Assembly: GCF_000316625.1 (NCBI RefSeq)
Contig: NC_019676.1
Location: 607,001-671,000, forward strand
Reading direction: 5' to 3'
Length of the DNA: 64,000 nucleotides
From: Nostoc sp. PCC 7107
GTDB lineage: Bacteria; Cyanobacteriota; Cyanobacteriia; Cyanobacteriales; Nostocaceae
Shown here: positions 57,865-64,000 of the stretch, piece by piece
How positions within the stretch are numbered: the stretch's first letter is position 1
Layout of the letters: each line of letters starts with the position of its first letter
Position numbers and translations under genes: made by a program
Notes under the pieces: model-generated
What the model was told of the DNA's origin: nothing
The model's database searches: none
What the model saw: only the letters and a program-made list of their open reading frames with translations

Positions 57865-59193
57865 TTACAAACTAAATTCCGCTGCATCATCTTCATCTAT
57901 ACCGACATTTTTACCAACGGCTATAGGTTTGAATAGAGAACTTTGAATTAATTCACTGAATGTAATTTTCGGATTTTGGTGCAGGATATTCAGCACGCTA
58001 ATAAAATCTCGGATGATTTCGCCGGGTGTGAGTAATGCGTCTGCACCTAGGCGGCTAACGATTTCTTGTAAGAATTCTTGTAAGTTGCGATCGCTCAACG
58101 TTTTATCATAGCCATAGTGAGTTACATGAATGTCTTTGAGGCGTTGTAACAGAGTTAAAATTTCAGCTTCACTCAACGGGTTTAAGCGAATCACAGGGCC
58201 TAAAAACTCCTGGACATTGGCTTGGGTAGCAAAACGGCTTTCCTTTGTGCGTCTGCGCCAAGCTTGGTCAGCAAAAAGTCCGCGATTTTGGTCTTCTAAA
58301 AACTTAGTTGTGCCACCGATAAAAATACCCAGATGCTCGGCTTTGCATTGCATGGTATCATTAAACATTGTCAGCAGTCTGTTGTAGTTTTTCTCGCGGG
58401 TGACAGTAGTAGATATTTGATACAAATTTACCGCTTCATCTAACAAAATTAATAAACCTTTATAGCCAATCTCGGCAACAAATTTAGCGAATAATTTAAT
58501 GTAGTCATACCAACTTTCATCATCAATAATTACCCGCACTCCTAAAGCAGCCCTCGCTTCAATTTTGGTGCTGAATTCTCCGCGCAACCAACGCAAAGCT
58601 GCATTTTTTAAATTATCATCATCTAACCGATAACCACGCCAATAGGCAATAATGACGTTACCAAAATCAAAGCCATGAACTAAGTCTTCAATATACTGCA
58701 CGACTTCTCGAATTTTGGCTTCAACTTGGTCATCAAAACCTTCATCATTTGGCCGCATATTAGTTTCTTTGGCCACTTCTTGCTGGATTTTGTTAATCCA
58801 ACCTTCTAAAATTGAAACTAAAGCACCACCATCAGGGCGTGTTTTTGTGGAAAGGTGACTCATTAGTTCTCGATAAGTAGCTAAACCTTCGTTGTTGCTT
58901 CCTGCGAGGCGACGTTCTGATGATAAATCAGCATCGGCTACTACAAAACCTTGTTCCATCGCTCGGTTGCGAATCATTTGGAGGAGAAAGCTTTTACCTG
59001 AACCATAGTTACCAATAATAAAGCGGAATGCGGCGACACCTTCGGCAATGTCATCTAGATTTTGTATGAGGCTTTTAAGTTCTTGTTCTCGACCAACTGC
59101 TATATGTTCAACTCCTAGTCTCGGTACTACTCCCGCACCTAGGGAATTAATTAAAGCAGTGGAAATTTTCTTCGAGATTTTGAGCTTTGCCAT
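57865..59193 (-). CDS. P-loop ATPase, DUF2791/BrxD-like
   Basis: The 442 residues (ATG 59193; a GTG at 59202 adds three) have VGREQELKSLIQNLDDIAEG, Walker A FIIGNYGSGKSFLLQM (about residue 65), Walker B KGLLILLDEAVNLYQI (about 240) and the sensor region FIGGTTKFLEDQNRGLF. The C-terminal part ends with a helical winged-like segment (LTPGEIIRDFISVLNILHQN). This fits the DUF2791 ATP-binding family found with TerB-type proteins and as BrxD in BREX phage-defence loci. Here no methyltransferase, PglZ or BrxA/B gene is near, so it is not a BREX system. It closes the three-gene operon, 56 bases after the coiled-coil gene. Confidence 0.85.
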   Translation of the reverse strand: MAKLKISKKISTALINSLGAGVVPRLGVEHIAVGREQELKSLIQNLDDIAEGVAAFRFIIGNYGSGKSFLLQMIRNRAMEQGFVVADADLSSERRLAGSNNEGLATYRELMSHLSTKTRPDGGALVSILEGWINKIQQEVAKETNMRPNDEGFDDQVEAKIREVVQYIEDLVHGFDFGNVIIAYWRGYRLDDDNLKNAALRWLRGEFSTKIEARAALGVRVIIDDESWYDYIKLFAKFVAEIGYKGLLILLDEAVNLYQISTTVTREKNYNRLLTMFNDTMQCKAEHLGIFIGGTTKFLEDQNRGLFADQAWRRRTKESRFATQANVQEFLGPVIRLNPLSEAEILTLLQRLKDIHVTHYGYDKTLSDRNLQEFLQEIVSRLGADALLTPGEIIRDFISVLNILHQNPKITFSELIQSSLFKPIAVGKNVGIDEDDAAEFSL

Positions 59194-59249
59194 GTACTTC
59201 ACTAGATTTTATATTTCACGCAATAATAATTTTACGATAACAAGTAATA

Positions 59250-60521
59250 TTAATTTGATGAGGCTTGCCTACTCATGAGGTCTTCGTACATAGCAATCAT
59301 TTTGCGGATATTGTTCAGGTGTTCTTGATAAACTTCGGGAATGTCTTCTCCAGGCTCAATGATTAATTCGCCAATAGTATCATTGGCGCGGTCATTAATC
59401 GAATCAATTAATAAATTTGGCATGGTAATGTTGGCTTCAGCAATTTGTTTAATCGCCGCTTTGGGGTTATCTGCTTGCAATATCGCTTTTAATACTTCTA
59501 TTTCATGACCTGGTAATTTTTCTAATAAATTAGTCCATTCTTCAGGTAAATCTTCAATGATATCTTCTGAAGATGCTATTAAGTCGGCAAAAGGAAATAA
59601 ATCAGGTTCCTCTTCTGAGCGGAGATTTACAGGTATATAGTCTAAATTAAGTGTTTCTGTTTGTTGGAGTAATTCCCAAACTTGGTTTTGTAATAAATCT
59701 CGTTCTGCTTGTAATATTGAAACTTGATCATTTAGCTGTTGTAGTTCTGATTCTTTATCTAATGTTTGCTGATTTAAATTATTCAGGGTACTAATGATGT
59801 CGTTTCTTTCGGTTATGGTATCGGCTAATAATTTATTTTGCTGAGAGACAACAATTTCTAGCTCTTGAATTTGAATTCGGAGTTCATACATTTTTTCCTC
59901 TAGCTGAGGCTTGAGCCTACCTAGTAAGGTTAAATTATTCTCCAGTTCTTGTTTATCTTGTCGCAGTTGATCAATTTGAGTTTGTAATTGGACAATTTCT
60001 GCATGAGACACATTACTGTGTAATTCTAAGCGGCGTTTTTCCGCTGTGAGGTTAGAGCAAGTGTGACTCAATTCTGTATTGGTTTGTTCTAGAGTTTGAA
60101 TTGTAGTTTTTAAGTTATTAGTTTCAGTTTCTAATTGTTTTTTCTGCCCAGCAAAATTACTCAATTCTCGATGCAGACTATCTCTTTGGTTGCGAGATTC
60201 TGCAATTTGATTTTGGAGTTTTTGTGTCTCGCCATATAATAAGCTGCGATGTTCTTCTATTTGTTTTATTTCTCGATAAATGCGATTTTTTAAAGCTTCT
60301 TGCTCTTTAATTCGTTTACGCAAGGTTACTAACACTAACATTTCATGATGTCTACGGCGTTTATCAACAAATAATGCTGCGGCATAAGTAGCAAGTACAG
60401 TAATTATGCCTGTAATGAAAGCTTGACTAAAATTCCAGTTGGGAACCAGACTAAGCCCAAAACTTACACTAAAGGCAACTACACCTAAAAGAAATCGATT
60501 GCTGACCATTACTGCTTGCAT
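59250..60521 (-). CDS. Membrane coiled-coil protein with TerB_C-like C-terminus
   Basis: The 423-residue protein has two hydrophobic segments near the N-terminus (NRFLLGVVAFSVSFGLSLVP and FITGIITVLATYAAALF, about residues 8-55), then a long coiled coil (about 65-290: KEQEALKNRIYREIKQIEE, many heptads), an acidic linker (EEEPDLFPF) and a C-terminal domain (about 325-420: WTNLLEKLPGHEIEVLKAIL, MPNLLIDSINDRANDTIGEL, IIEPGEDIPEVYQE). The C-terminal pattern resembles the TerB_C domain found in tellurite/stress-linked ATPase systems. Middle gene of three, with short gaps (28 and 56 bases). It may anchor the two ATPases to a membrane. No enzymatic motif. Confidence 0.72.
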   Translation of the reverse strand: MQAVMVSNRFLLGVVAFSVSFGLSLVPNWNFSQAFITGIITVLATYAAALFVDKRRRHHEMLVLVTLRKRIKEQEALKNRIYREIKQIEEHRSLLYGETQKLQNQIAESRNQRDSLHRELSNFAGQKKQLETETNNLKTTIQTLEQTNTELSHTCSNLTAEKRRLELHSNVSHAEIVQLQTQIDQLRQDKQELENNLTLLGRLKPQLEEKMYELRIQIQELEIVVSQQNKLLADTITERNDIISTLNNLNQQTLDKESELQQLNDQVSILQAERDLLQNQVWELLQQTETLNLDYIPVNLRSEEEPDLFPFADLIASSEDIIEDLPEEWTNLLEKLPGHEIEVLKAILQADNPKAAIKQIAEANITMPNLLIDSINDRANDTIGELIIEPGEDIPEVYQEHLNNIRKMIAMYEDLMSRQASSN

Positions 60522-60549
60522 ATTGCTGGTGTTAATTCGTAATTCGTAA

Positions 60550-61905
60550 TTAAAATTGTGGCTGAGGTTCAGAATTAATATTAGTTGTACTAAAGAGAGA
60601 TATATCTGCTTTCAAAAAATCAATAAATTGCCGTGCTGTGCGTCCAGAACGACCGTTATGACGTGTTGCCCACTGTAATGCTTGATATTCTAAATCTTCT
60701 GGGCTGAGATTAATTTTTGCTTGTGCTGCTAAATGGCGAATAATTGTTAAATAAGTCTGTTGATTTGCTGGTTCAAAGGTTAAGGTCAAACCAAAGCGAT
60801 CGCTAAATGATAACTTCTCCTGCATGGTATCCCAAGCATGGATTTCTTCGTGATCTTTGGGGGTGGGTCTATCGGCGAAATATTCCCGAATCAGGTGGCG
60901 GCGGTTGGAGGTAGCGAAGACAACTACATTTTGCGGCCTCGCAGTTAAATTCCCTTCTAAAACTACCTTAAGGGCTTTAAACGCATCGTCATCTTCCTCA
61001 AAGGAGAGGTCATCAACAAAGATGATAAATTTTTGGGGTAAACCGCGTAACTGTTCAACAATTTTAGGTAAATCTTGTAAGTCAGATTTGCCTACTTCTA
61101 GTACACGCAGTTGACGTTCTCCATACTCGTTCAACAAGGCTTTGACTAAAGAAGATTTACCCGAACCGCGACTACCATAAAGTAATACATGCAATGCTGT
61201 TTCGCCGCATAATAAAAACTCTGTATTTTTCAGCAAAGCATCACGCTGCCATTCATAGCCTACCAGGGTATTTAACTTGATTGGATCAGGATACGGAATA
61301 CCGACAAACTGCCCACTTTGCCAACGTAAGGCGCGATACTCAGCAAATAAACCTACACCAAATTTTTGATAATAAGCAGCTAATTCTTCGACAGCATCAG
61401 CCCAATGTTCCCAGTCTGGTAAATTCAGGGTTGTATTGCTGCTGAGATGATGGTGTTCTTGATACCAAACTACGGGCGAAACAGGCAAATGAGCAACAGT
61501 CTGCACCCATTCGCTAAGACAAGCAGTGCTGCATTCATAAAGACTTTGTAATATCTGTAAATCATTTTGGGCGGCTGCAATTAAAGTTAGAGGTAACTCC
61601 GAGAAATCTTTTTGTTGCGCCATTCGGCTAAAGGGATTTTCACAAAGGAGAATTTGCGAAATTAAATGGTCTTCCCAATTTTGATTGCGTGCTGCTAAGG
61701 CGTGGAAGTAATTTCCGTAGGCTTGGAGACAACCCCTAGCGTCGGCATCAGTGTAACGTATTGCTTGCAACAGTTCCATAAAGGCGATCGCGGCTTCGCT
61801 CTGGAGAACAGATTGGTAGAGTAAAAGAGATGCTGTTTGACGCTGGAGAAATTGAACCTGGGCTAATAAAGTACTTGCCGTTGCCATCGCTGGAATATCC
61901 ATCAA
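60550..61905 (-). CDS. DUF815 family P-loop ATPase
   Basis: The 451-residue protein has a helical N-terminal part (about 1-200) and a P-loop domain: TLVGYEWQRDALLKNTEF, Walker A LLYGSRGSGKSSLVKALL (about 240), Walker B KFIIFVDDLSFEEDDDAFKAL, FATSNRRHLIREYF (sensor Asn) and FSDRFGLTLTFEPANQQTYL (Arg finger region), matching the DUF815 AAA+ family. The N-terminal region is longer than in simple DUF815 proteins. First gene of the operon with the coiled-coil and DUF2791 genes; the promoter should lie in the 84-base gap shared with the TMEM14-like gene. Confidence 0.88.
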   Translation of the reverse strand: MMDIPAMATASTLLAQVQFLQRQTASLLLYQSVLQSEAAIAFMELLQAIRYTDADARGCLQAYGNYFHALAARNQNWEDHLISQILLCENPFSRMAQQKDFSELPLTLIAAAQNDLQILQSLYECSTACLSEWVQTVAHLPVSPVVWYQEHHHLSSNTTLNLPDWEHWADAVEELAAYYQKFGVGLFAEYRALRWQSGQFVGIPYPDPIKLNTLVGYEWQRDALLKNTEFLLCGETALHVLLYGSRGSGKSSLVKALLNEYGERQLRVLEVGKSDLQDLPKIVEQLRGLPQKFIIFVDDLSFEEDDDAFKALKVVLEGNLTARPQNVVVFATSNRRHLIREYFADRPTPKDHEEIHAWDTMQEKLSFSDRFGLTLTFEPANQQTYLTIIRHLAAQAKINLSPEDLEYQALQWATRHNGRSGRTARQFIDFLKADISLFSTTNINSEPQPQF

Positions 61906-62501: not shown

Positions 62502-62846
62502 ATGCCGTACTCTAGCAGCCTAACAGATGAAGAATGGGAAATTCTAGAACCCCTACTGCCGACTATATTGCCTGCGAAGAAACAGACTAGACCCTCGAAC
62601 TGGACAAAAAGAGAACTCTTAGATGGCATCTTCTATCAACTAAAGAATGGCTGCAATTGGGAAAACTTACCCCAGGACTTGCCCCCTTACTCAACTGTAT
62701 ACTGGCATTACAAGCAGTGGCGGGCCCAAGGAGTGATAGAAGAACTAATGAGAGTTTTACATGGACAAGTGCGTGAACAGGTAAAAAAAAGCCAAGTGGA
62801 CGACGTTGATAATTATCGACTCTCAAGCGGTGAAAAATACCTGTAA
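62502..62846 (+). CDS. IS5 transposase, first frame (orfA)
   Basis: The 114-residue product carries the N-terminal region of IS5-type transposases (SLTDEEWEILEPLLP, LLDGIFYQLKNGCNWENLP, PYSTVYWHYKQWRAQGVIEE). The catalytic DDE domain is not in this frame: after an eight-A run (62783-62790) the frame continues only as SQVDDVDNYR to a stop. Losing one A, or slippage of RNA polymerase on the A-run, joins it to the second frame. DUF4096-type helix-turn-helix DNA-binding N-domain inferred from the family. Confidence 0.85.
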   Translation: MPYSSSLTDEEWEILEPLLPTILPAKKQTRPSNWTKRELLDGIFYQLKNGCNWENLPQDLPPYSTVYWHYKQWRAQGVIEELMRVLHGQVREQVKKSQVDDVDNYRLSSGEKYL

Positions 62847-63354
62847 TGCTCGCATTACATCGAAAGGATATTGTTTCTACAAATCGACGAATGGCATTAA
62901 AAGACATCTAGCGGTTGATACCCTGGGTTTTCCCTTCTTTACTCACTGCACCAAAGCAAATGTGTCTGACGATATGGGTTTGATTGAGATGTTGACTAAA
63001 AACATCGATTATTTCCAATCGAAACCCGTCAATATTCCCAAAATCACCATTCTGCTAGACCACGGTTATCATCCTGAGTATTTGAGGGAGGAGCTAGAAA
63101 AAGTTTATCCCCAAATAATGACGAAAATCAGGTTTGAACTTTCGGCAAAACCATCAAAACAAGAAAAGAAAGAACTAGGGATATCTGGGTTTGTTCCGGT
63201 GGCTGCGAGGTGGGTAATTGAACGCTCAAATGCCTGGATGGAGAGATGCAAAATTCTTGTCAAGAACTTTGAGAGAACTCTAGTTAATGCAACTGCCAAG
63301 GTTAATCTTTGTTTTATTCGGTTGATGCTTAAGAGGCTGCAAGCCTCTTCTTAG
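62806..63354 (+). CDS. IS5 transposase, second frame (orfB, catalytic part)
   Basis: The open stretch begins upstream of the first usable start (KAKWTTLIIIDSQAVKNTC in phase after the A-run) and holds the transposase core: IIIDSQAVKNT (first Asp), HLAVDTLGFPFFTHCTKANV, ILLDHGYHPEYLREEL (second Asp), and RWVIERSNAWMERCKILVKN (Glu). All three acidic residues of the DDE triad are present, so the element could still move if the fusion protein is made. The C-terminus ends just before the right inverted repeat. Confidence 0.85.
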   Translation: MIIIDSQAVKNTCNARITSKGYCFYKSTNGIKRHLAVDTLGFPFFTHCTKANVSDDMGLIEMLTKNIDYFQSKPVNIPKITILLDHGYHPEYLREELEKVYPQIMTKIRFELSAKPSKQEKKELGISGFVPVAARWVIERSNAWMERCKILVKNFERTLVNATAKVNLCFIRLMLKRLQASS

Positions 63355-63368
63355 ATGTCAAATGAGTT

Positions 63369-64000
63369 CTATAACCAATTCCCAATTAAGACAAAAGCTG
63401 CCCAATGAACAGGCTTAGAGAATCGCTCATCGTGTAGAATTGCCAGTTGAGCTTGACGGAGAGCTTCTGCTTTCGTTACCTTTTTATTACGTAATTCTTG
63501 ATAAAATCGGATCATTAACAAGGTAGTCGAATCATCTGGGACTACCCACAAAGAGCCTACAGTACTTCGCGCTCCAGCCCGGATTGCTACCCCTGCCATT
63601 CCTAAAGCTGCTCTTGTATCGCCTTCAGCCGTACTACAAGCACTCAGAACCAGTAATTCAATCGGCTGCCTATATCCTGTATCAGTCCGAAAAAATTCAT
63701 CTAACTCTTTGGCATTGATTTTATCGTTATAAGTCAGTAGGAAAGTGTTTTCGGAACGGGAACTAAATTTGCCGTGAGTTGCAACATGAATAATTGAAAA
63801 AGGTAGCGAATTAATTGTTTGTGTGAATTTTGATTTAGTAAACATCTCATTCAGCAATATTTTTGCTGGAATTTGCTGACGGATACCCTTGAATTCTTCC
63901 TCAACTCCAGGAAGCGAATCAAAATCCTGCACAGATTTACTCAGACCGGCAGCCAAGATATTCAAGTTATCCAGTTTTATTGGTTTAGGATCTAGTAGCT
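63369..64000 (-). CDS. CHAT-domain caspase-like protease, C-terminal part (cut by window edge)
   Basis: The frame is open to the window edge (LLDPKPIKLDNLNILAAG before the TTG at 63965), so this is the 3' end of a larger gene. It shows the CHAT/peptidase C80-like catalytic His in IIHVATHGKFSSRSENTF and the Cys in LLVLSACSTAEGDTRAALG, plus the end ILHDERFSKPVHWAAFVLIG. The TAG stop lies in the IS5 terminal repeat, so the insertion removed or replaced the last few residues. Cyanobacterial CHAT proteins usually carry TPR or other repeats upstream and may act in programmed cell death or regulated proteolysis; CHAT domains in other bacteria also cleave gasdermins and toxins. Confidence 0.9.
   Translation of the reverse strand, partial: LLDPKPIKLDNLNILAAGLSKSVQDFDSLPGVEEEFKGIRQQIPAKILLNEMFTKSKFTQTINSLPFSIIHVATHGKFSSRSENTFLLTYNDKINAKELDEFFRTDTGYRQPIELLVLSACSTAEGDTRAALGMAGVAIRAGARSTVGSLWVVPDDSTTLLMIRFYQELRNKKVTKAEALRQAQLAILHDERFSKPVHWAAFVLIGNWL

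What the first reader, a model, noticed from the sequence alone, without database searches (positions are those of the whole stretch)
57865..61905. Three-gene operon: DUF815 ATPase, membrane coiled-coil with TerB_C-like end, DUF2791/BrxD-like ATPase
Seen: three minus-strand genes with gaps of 28 and 56 bases; two different P-loop ATPases flank a protein with two membrane segments, a ~225-residue coiled coil and a C-terminal domain whose pattern (LEKLPGHEIEVLKAIL ... SINDRANDTIGELIIE) resembles TerB_C. Known: DUF2791 ATPases occur with TerB domains and as BrxD in BREX defence. Inference: a membrane-tethered, ATP-driven stress or phage-defence machine, different from BREX because none of the other BREX genes are here. 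The combination with DUF815 is not one I know.
Basis: partly seen in the sequence, partly recalled or inferred. Interest (0 to 1): 0.75.

Follow-up and report, generated by a model that had tools for sequence, protein, structure and literature searches.

The report
Membrane-tethered Shango-like ATPase-helicase system
Three neighbouring bacterial genes look like most of a Shango-type anti-phage machine whose usual adaptor protein is replaced by a membrane-anchored one and whose helicase gene sits elsewhere in the chromosome; it is kept by most relatives, so it may do more than fight phages.

Summary
The three genes are real, with the stated coordinates and domains. The "BrxD-like" ATPase (57865-59202) is SngB of Shango: 604 bits with PADLOC's SngB against 182 for BrxD, and below NCBIfam's BrxD cut-off. 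Shango is SngA adaptor, SngB ATPase, SngC helicase. The helicase exists: in several close relatives SngC follows SngB; here it lies 1.2 Mb away (835 bits) with its outer flank unchanged, so a rearrangement split the pair. In 192 family genomes SngB and SngC are both present in 166 and both missing in 23, though further than 5 kb apart in 10 of 20 checked. In place of SngA (TerB_N plus TerB_C) stands a protein with a membrane hairpin, a long coiled coil and only a TerB_C end; TerB_N was found in 0 of 27 such genomes and in 5 of the 6 other genomes or records searched alongside. DUF815 has its own, wider distribution. Best reading: a membrane-tethered Shango variant, inherited vertically in this family, with TerB_C docking SngB. 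Docking and antiphage function are inferred; a housekeeping role remains open.

The parts
60550..61905 (-). DUF815 AAA+ ATPase, 451 aa; about 190-residue N-terminal region without a Pfam hit in the rows shown, then the AAA+ core
   Evidence: PF05673 317 bits over residues 189-433; Walker A GSRGSGKS and acidic Walker B FVDD visible in the translation
59250..60521 (-). Membrane hairpin + long coiled coil + TerB_C adaptor, 423 aa ('MID' in the report); stands in the place of SngA
   Evidence: PF15615 72.1 bits; the only TerB_C match in the genome at E<=0.001; helical layout of the first 289 residues
59304..59555 (-). TerB_C region proper (about residues 323-406), with the pattern IKxIAExxITMPxxLIDxINxxAxxxIGELI
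   Evidence: columns conserved in at least 90% of 29 SngB-bearing family rows, window included; TMPxL..DxIN and IG(D/E)L shared with two Paenibacillus SngA proteins
57865..59202 (-). SngB-type ATPase, 445 aa
   Evidence: PADLOC SngB 604 bits, BrxD 182 bits; NCBIfam BrxD 183 bits, cut-off 350; Walker A and Walker B residues invariant with 23 Paenibacillus-type SngB

Best explanation
The genes encode a membrane-tethered variant of the Shango system. The middle protein is anchored by a two-helix membrane hairpin, holds its TerB_C domain away from the membrane on a long coiled coil, and through TerB_C docks the SngB ATPase; SngB in turn works with the SngC helicase, encoded 1.2 Mb away in this genome. 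SngB and SngC would form an ATP-driven DNA-processing motor held at the membrane, where phage DNA enters; DUF815, a separate AAA+ ATPase with a wider distribution in the phylum, would remodel or regulate the anchor protein. Shown: domains, gene order, co-occurrence of SngB with SngC, lack of a TerB_N match. Inferred: the TerB_C-SngB contact, the membrane position of the motor, the role of DUF815, and defence as the purpose.
For: SngB 604 bits and SngC 835 bits with PADLOC's Shango models. SngC lies on the same strand beside SngB in relatives (within 5 kb in 10 of 20 SngB-bearing family genomes of the phylum sample; within 2.3 kb in 8 of 11 same-genus genomes, counted by hand from coordinates). 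The own-genome SngC keeps the three genes that flank SngC in relative G355, at 97-99% identity, but not SngB. In 244 phylum genomes, 38 match SngB at E<=0.001; the 24 above 570 bits are the same 24 that have SngC above 600 bits in one piece. In 192 family genomes: both 166, SngB only 1, SngC only 2, neither 23; the 3 exceptions are assemblies of 860-1300 contigs. All 167 SngB genomes have the membrane protein; 187 of 192 have it. TerB_C aligns with the TerB_C end of two SngA proteins. TerB_N: 0 of 27 genomes of this type, 5 of the other 6 searched. TerB_C is missing or cut in 5 of 20 SngB-less and 0 of 34 SngB-bearing genomes fetched.
Against: No phage assay. 15 of 20 SngB-less family genomes with the membrane protein keep a TerB_C-like end, so TerB_C has another use or the losses are recent. 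Corrected for kinship the TerB_C/SngB link is not significant: 2-4 of 5 independent pairs go the same way, none the other, median p 0.25. The SngB/SngC link goes the same way in 5 of 5 pairs, p 0.0625, the least that 5 pairs can give, with SngC states that I assigned by hand. Genome G345 has an intact SngB but its membrane-protein gene is broken into three frames. Kept in most of the family, unlike Shango on plasmids. Outside the family TerB_C is weak: G062 gives no Pfam match at E 0.01.
Confidence: 0.62

Rival explanations
1. A domesticated housekeeping machine: SngB and SngC, once part of a mobile Shango, now serve chromosome maintenance, repair or envelope work at the membrane, and antiphage activity is lost or secondary.
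For: 167 of 192 family genomes carry SngB, 77-98% identical to the window's in the full-length rows printed; neighbours look like clpC, lysA and uppS (lysA and uppS by eye); DUF815 and the membrane protein stay when SngB and SngC are lost.
Against: At least 5 changes of the SngB state are forced by starred branches among 52 rows (7 in the best tree), so it is dispensable; SngB and SngC still match the models of the tested defence system over nearly their whole length; SngABC with TerB_N is also widespread in Paenibacillus, so wide presence in a group need not mean loss of the defence role.
Confidence: 0.27
2. Ordinary Shango that has merely lost the N-terminal half of SngA; the coiled coil and membrane segments add nothing, and DUF815 is a chance neighbour.
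For: SngB and SngC are full members by profile; DUF815 occurs without a strong SngB in 64 of the 88 genomes that match it.
Against: The N-terminal half is not a truncated SngA but a different module: a similar hairpin with coil also occurs with other C-terminal ends. The membrane protein is within 5 kb of DUF815 in 18 of 20 SngB-bearing family genomes, and the two are neighbours in 18 of 19 SngB-less family stretches fetched.
Confidence: 0.08
3. A divergent BREX-type module (BrxC/BrxD ATPase with accessory genes).
For: PF10923 covers BrxC, BrxD and this ATPase alike.
Against: BrxD equivalog model 183 bits against a cut-off of 350; only one PF10923 match in the whole genome, so no separate BrxC of this family.
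Confidence: 0.03

Closest known systems
Shango (SngA-SngB-SngC), PMC10250203 (passages read)
   Same: SngB ATPase and SngC helicase, both nearly full length by profile; a TerB_C domain; SngC beside SngB in several close relatives
   Different: SngA replaced by membrane hairpin + coiled coil + TerB_C without a TerB_N match; extra DUF815 neighbour; SngC often unlinked; kept in most of the family
SngABC of Paenibacillus and close kin (80 best of 463 confirmed loci; A-B-C in order in 79 of 80)
   Same: SngB 53-59% identical to the window's and SngC 46-52% to the relative's, in the ORFs labelled
   Different: SngA is TerB_N + TerB_C (two proteins scanned; TerB_N match in 80 of 80 loci); a hydrophobic stretch was flagged in SngA-labelled ORFs of 2 loci only (L159, L206)
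BREX BrxD/BrxC
   Same: same Pfam family PF10923
   Different: fails the BrxD equivalog cut-off; no second PF10923 match in the genome
DruE-like plasmid cluster of Fremyella (AP018241.1, L239)
   Same: 30% identical membrane hairpin and start of coil over residues 2-221, near a DruE-like helicase (371 bits)
   Different: no TerB_C or other Pfam match in that protein; its C-terminal end is different by eye; no SngB among the five proteins scanned

Membership tests
Shango | SngB ATPase | tested here: met
   PADLOC SngB 604 bits over residues 4-427
Shango | SngC DEAD/DEAH helicase | tested here: met
   Own genome C1:1885255-1887417, PADLOC SngC 835 bits; unlinked here, beside SngB in several relatives
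Shango | SngA adaptor with TerB_N and TerB_C | tested here: not met
   TerB_C only; SngA model 56 bits over coil and TerB_C; TerB_N matched in 0 of 27 genomes of this type and in 5 of the other 6 searched; the earlier search of the own genome alone had no ringing control
Shango | three genes together in one operon | tested here: not met
   SngC 1.2 Mb away in this genome; SngB-SngC within 5 kb in 10 of 20 family genomes
Shango | antiphage activity | not testable with these tools
   needs phage assay
BREX | BrxD equivalog score | tested here: not met
   183 bits, cut-off 350
BREX | second PF10923 ATPase (BrxC) | tested here: not met
   one PF10923 match in the whole genome
BREX | PglZ and BrxX genes | not tested
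   not searched for genome-wide
TerB_C domain | Pfam gathering score | tested here: met
   72.1 bits, cut-off 26.3
DUF815 | Pfam gathering score | tested here: met
   317 bits, cut-off 23.8

The most novel reading that the evidence does not exclude
Cyanobacteria own a reusable membrane-anchor module (TM hairpin plus coiled coil) that is plugged, through exchangeable C-terminal domains, onto helicase machines of defence type: through TerB_C onto Shango's SngB and SngC, and on a plasmid onto a DruE-like cluster. The Shango form has become a standing, membrane-posted DNA surveillance device of a whole family, with its genes dispersed but inherited as a set.
Probability: 0.3. Interest if true: 0.75.

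Novelty: new variant of a known kind. Interest (0 to 1): 0.55.

Why it matters
The passages on Shango that I read report its domains and its phage protection; none gives a mechanism. A variant that keeps SngB and SngC but not TerB_N would show which parts are the core, point to TerB_C as the docking piece, and put the machine at a membrane. A search that requires SngA or operon linkage would be expected to miss it (not tested). Natural losses in the family offer ready comparisons.

Tried and rejected
BrxD/BREX reading: rejected by profile scores and the single PF10923 match. A trio without a helicase: rejected once SngC was recognised beside SngB in relatives and found unlinked in this genome. 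DUF815 as an obligate Shango part: rejected, since 88 of 244 genomes match it (two only at E 5e-4 and 9e-4) and 24 have a strong SngB. TerB_C loss as proof of docking: downgraded after the kinship-aware test. Structure: the SngB model was poor (mean pLDDT 62.5); its nearest Foldseek hits, RADAR RdrA and BREX BrxC, have TM-scores of 0.34 or less and are not used as evidence. Solved structures by sequence, SngB only: no hit. Viral contigs with SngB, close relatives only: none. Plasmids with DUF815: 123 records, none covering 80% of the query; one neighbourhood looked at, mostly metabolic genes. Literature, in the held PMC library only and as listings: DUF2791 with TerB and alone 0 papers; at least 3 of Shango, defence, TerB, ATPase 87 papers, 20 listed; at least two of SngA, SngB, SngC 2 papers; DUF815 2 papers, unrelated by title and start of abstract; guessed Anabaena locus names, recalled, 0 papers; at least two of Shango, helicase, TerB since 2023, 118 papers, 25 listed; Shango with cyanobacteria 15 papers, none on this subject by title and start of abstract. 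PMC10250203, PMC10952713 and PMC11096173 were seen as found passages only.
Full report
What is there. Three minus-strand genes at 57865-61905, as described. In transcription order: DUF815 AAA+ ATPase, a membrane-hairpin/coiled-coil/TerB_C protein (called MID below), and a BrxC/BrxD-family ATPase. All three pass their Pfam cut-offs.

The ATPase is SngB. PADLOC gives SngB 604 bits over residues 4-427 and BrxD 182 bits; NCBIfam's BrxD equivalog scores 183 against a cut-off of 350. It is the only PF10923 match in the genome. Shango is a three-gene antiphage system with TerB, ATPase and helicase parts, shown in Pseudomonas aeruginosa with modest plaque reduction and protection in liquid culture (PMC10250203, passages read). 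On plasmids 692 records match the window's SngB, 542 of them typed conjugative; of the 40 rows shown, 28 have a TerB N-terminal or helicase gene under the match and one more a TerB C-terminal gene.

The missing helicase. In relatives a gene of about 724 codons lies beside SngB on the same strand; six such proteins are 45-48% identical to SngC of a Paenibacillus Shango. In the window's genome the same gene, 93% identical to that of relative G355, lies at C1:1885255-1887417, 1.2 Mb from SngB, and scores 835 bits with PADLOC's SngC. On its far side it keeps the three genes that flank SngC in G355, at 97-99% identity, but SngB is not beside it, so a rearrangement separated SngB from SngC. Beside SngB this genome has a clpC-like gene instead.

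Co-occurrence. In 244 phylum genomes 38 match SngB at E<=0.001. The 24 above 570 bits are the 24 with SngC above 600 bits. Below that, three genomes (G018, G016, G122) have SngB at 308-334 bits with SngC at 358-417 bits beside it; G038 has SngB at 332 bits on one contig and SngC at 281 bits on another, next to a weaker SngB-like match; the other ten have only weaker SngB-like matches, some with SngC-like matches of 230-275 bits. In 192 family genomes SngB is in 167 and SngC, at E<=1e-60, in 168: both 166, SngB only 1 (G310), SngC only 2 (G275, G328), neither 23 (Fisher p 2e-26, which ignores kinship). Three of the 168 SngC matches are partial or diverged (G254, G257, G291, best E 1e-62 to 1e-124), and one SngB is a fragment (G371). 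Five SngB-less genomes were not printed; I take them to be G380, G383, G389, G392 and G394, which are missing from the printed positives. SngB and SngC are within 5 kb in only 10 of 20 SngB-bearing family genomes of the phylum sample, so joint loss is not simply one deletion. With kinship taken into account, 5 of 5 independent pairs on well-supported branches agree, p 0.0625, the least possible for five (SngC states assigned by hand).

The adaptor is different. SngA of two Paenibacillus records has TerB_N and TerB_C. MID has TerB_C alone, the only TerB_C match in the genome. TerB_N was matched in none of 27 genomes of this type (the window's, 22 others of its family, 4 outside it) and in 5 of the other 6 genomes or records in the same search (the miss is G016). 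The TerB_C ends share TMPxL..DxIN and IG(D/E)L, among the best conserved columns of MID's C-terminus in 29 SngB-bearing family rows. MID is matched in 187 of 192 family genomes and in all 167 SngB-bearing ones, and lies within 400 bases of SngB in the 20 family genomes. In four SngB-bearing genomes outside the family the parts are paired in other ways: DUF815 with SngB (G060), DUF815 with MID and SngB with SngC (G062), MID with SngB (G185, G116). There TerB_C is weak: 41.5 and 28.5 bits in G060 and G116, no match at E 0.01 in G062; G185 was not scanned.

Natural losses. Of 20 SngB-less family genomes with MID, four have lost or cut TerB_C (G149, G233, G256, G394), one is cut by a contig end (G275), and 15 keep a TerB_C-like end, three of them with altered motifs (G274, G306, G307). 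In the fetched set TerB_C is missing in 5 of 20 SngB-less and 0 of 34 SngB-bearing genomes (p 0.005 without kinship; the fifth is G005 of another family). With kinship it is not significant (median p 0.25). Against the model, G345 keeps SngB while its MID gene is broken into three frames. DUF815 and MID are neighbours in 18 of 19 SngB-less family stretches fetched, so the pair has a life of its own.

DUF815. 88 of 244 phylum genomes match it, two only at E 5e-4 and 9e-4; 64 of the 88 lack a strong SngB. I treat it as a partner of MID rather than as a Shango gene.

A reusable anchor. The hairpin and the start of the coil of MID (residues 2-221, 30% identity) recur on a Fremyella plasmid and two Tolypothrix plasmids. 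In the Fremyella record this is an 856-residue protein without a Pfam match, in a cluster with a DruE-like helicase (371 bits) and a DpdE-like SNF2 protein (648 bits). Two proteins of the phylum sample (L059, L064) carry a similar hairpin with C-terminal ends that look like methyltransferases by eye (no profile run). This suggests a membrane tether with exchangeable ends.

Kept, not mobile. Presence in 167 of 192 family genomes and the clpC-like neighbour argue for vertical inheritance. In Paenibacillus and close kin the ordinary set is also widespread: of 463 confirmed loci the best 80 were kept, all with TerB_N, SngB and SngC matches, 79 with A-B-C in order and close together; in the exception, L199, SngC is split.

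How it works, most likely. MID sits in the membrane and presents TerB_C; SngB docks there; SngC supplies the helicase; ATP hydrolysis by SngB drives or licenses DNA processing near the membrane; DUF815 remodels MID. Only the domains, gene order and co-occurrence are shown here. The rest is inference.

Noticed in passing
L239 (AP018241.1, 31129-43830): A Fremyella plasmid cluster: DpdE-like SNF2 protein, integrase (as annotated), an 856-aa protein whose hairpin-plus-coil start resembles the window's membrane protein, two small proteins without Pfam match, and a DruE-like helicase; looks like a defence-type cluster.
   Followed up: partly
L104:11829-14001, L105:11496-13925: Upstream of DUF815 in relatives lie an APH-type kinase gene and a HopA1-family gene; from memory this pair resembles class V lanthipeptide enzymes. 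In the window transposase-like ORFs follow the Tmemb_14 gene instead.
   Followed up: no
62502-63354: Two transposase-like ORFs in different frames beside the trio, probably one insertion element (judged by eye, no family scan).
   Followed up: no
63369-63965: CHAT-like protease fragment by eye; weak PADLOC BovA match, 32 bits.
   Followed up: no
L103:5917-7191 (G345): The membrane-protein gene is broken into three frames while SngB (96% identical) and SngC are full length; either a real loss or an assembly error.
   Followed up: no
L059:4989-6362 and L064:5280-6650: Two proteins with the same kind of membrane hairpin and a short coil but C-terminal ends that look like methyltransferases by eye.
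   Followed up: no
L139-L218: SngABC with TerB_N is widespread in Paenibacillus genomes with varied flanks, so ordinary Shango may be a standing feature there too.
   Followed up: partly
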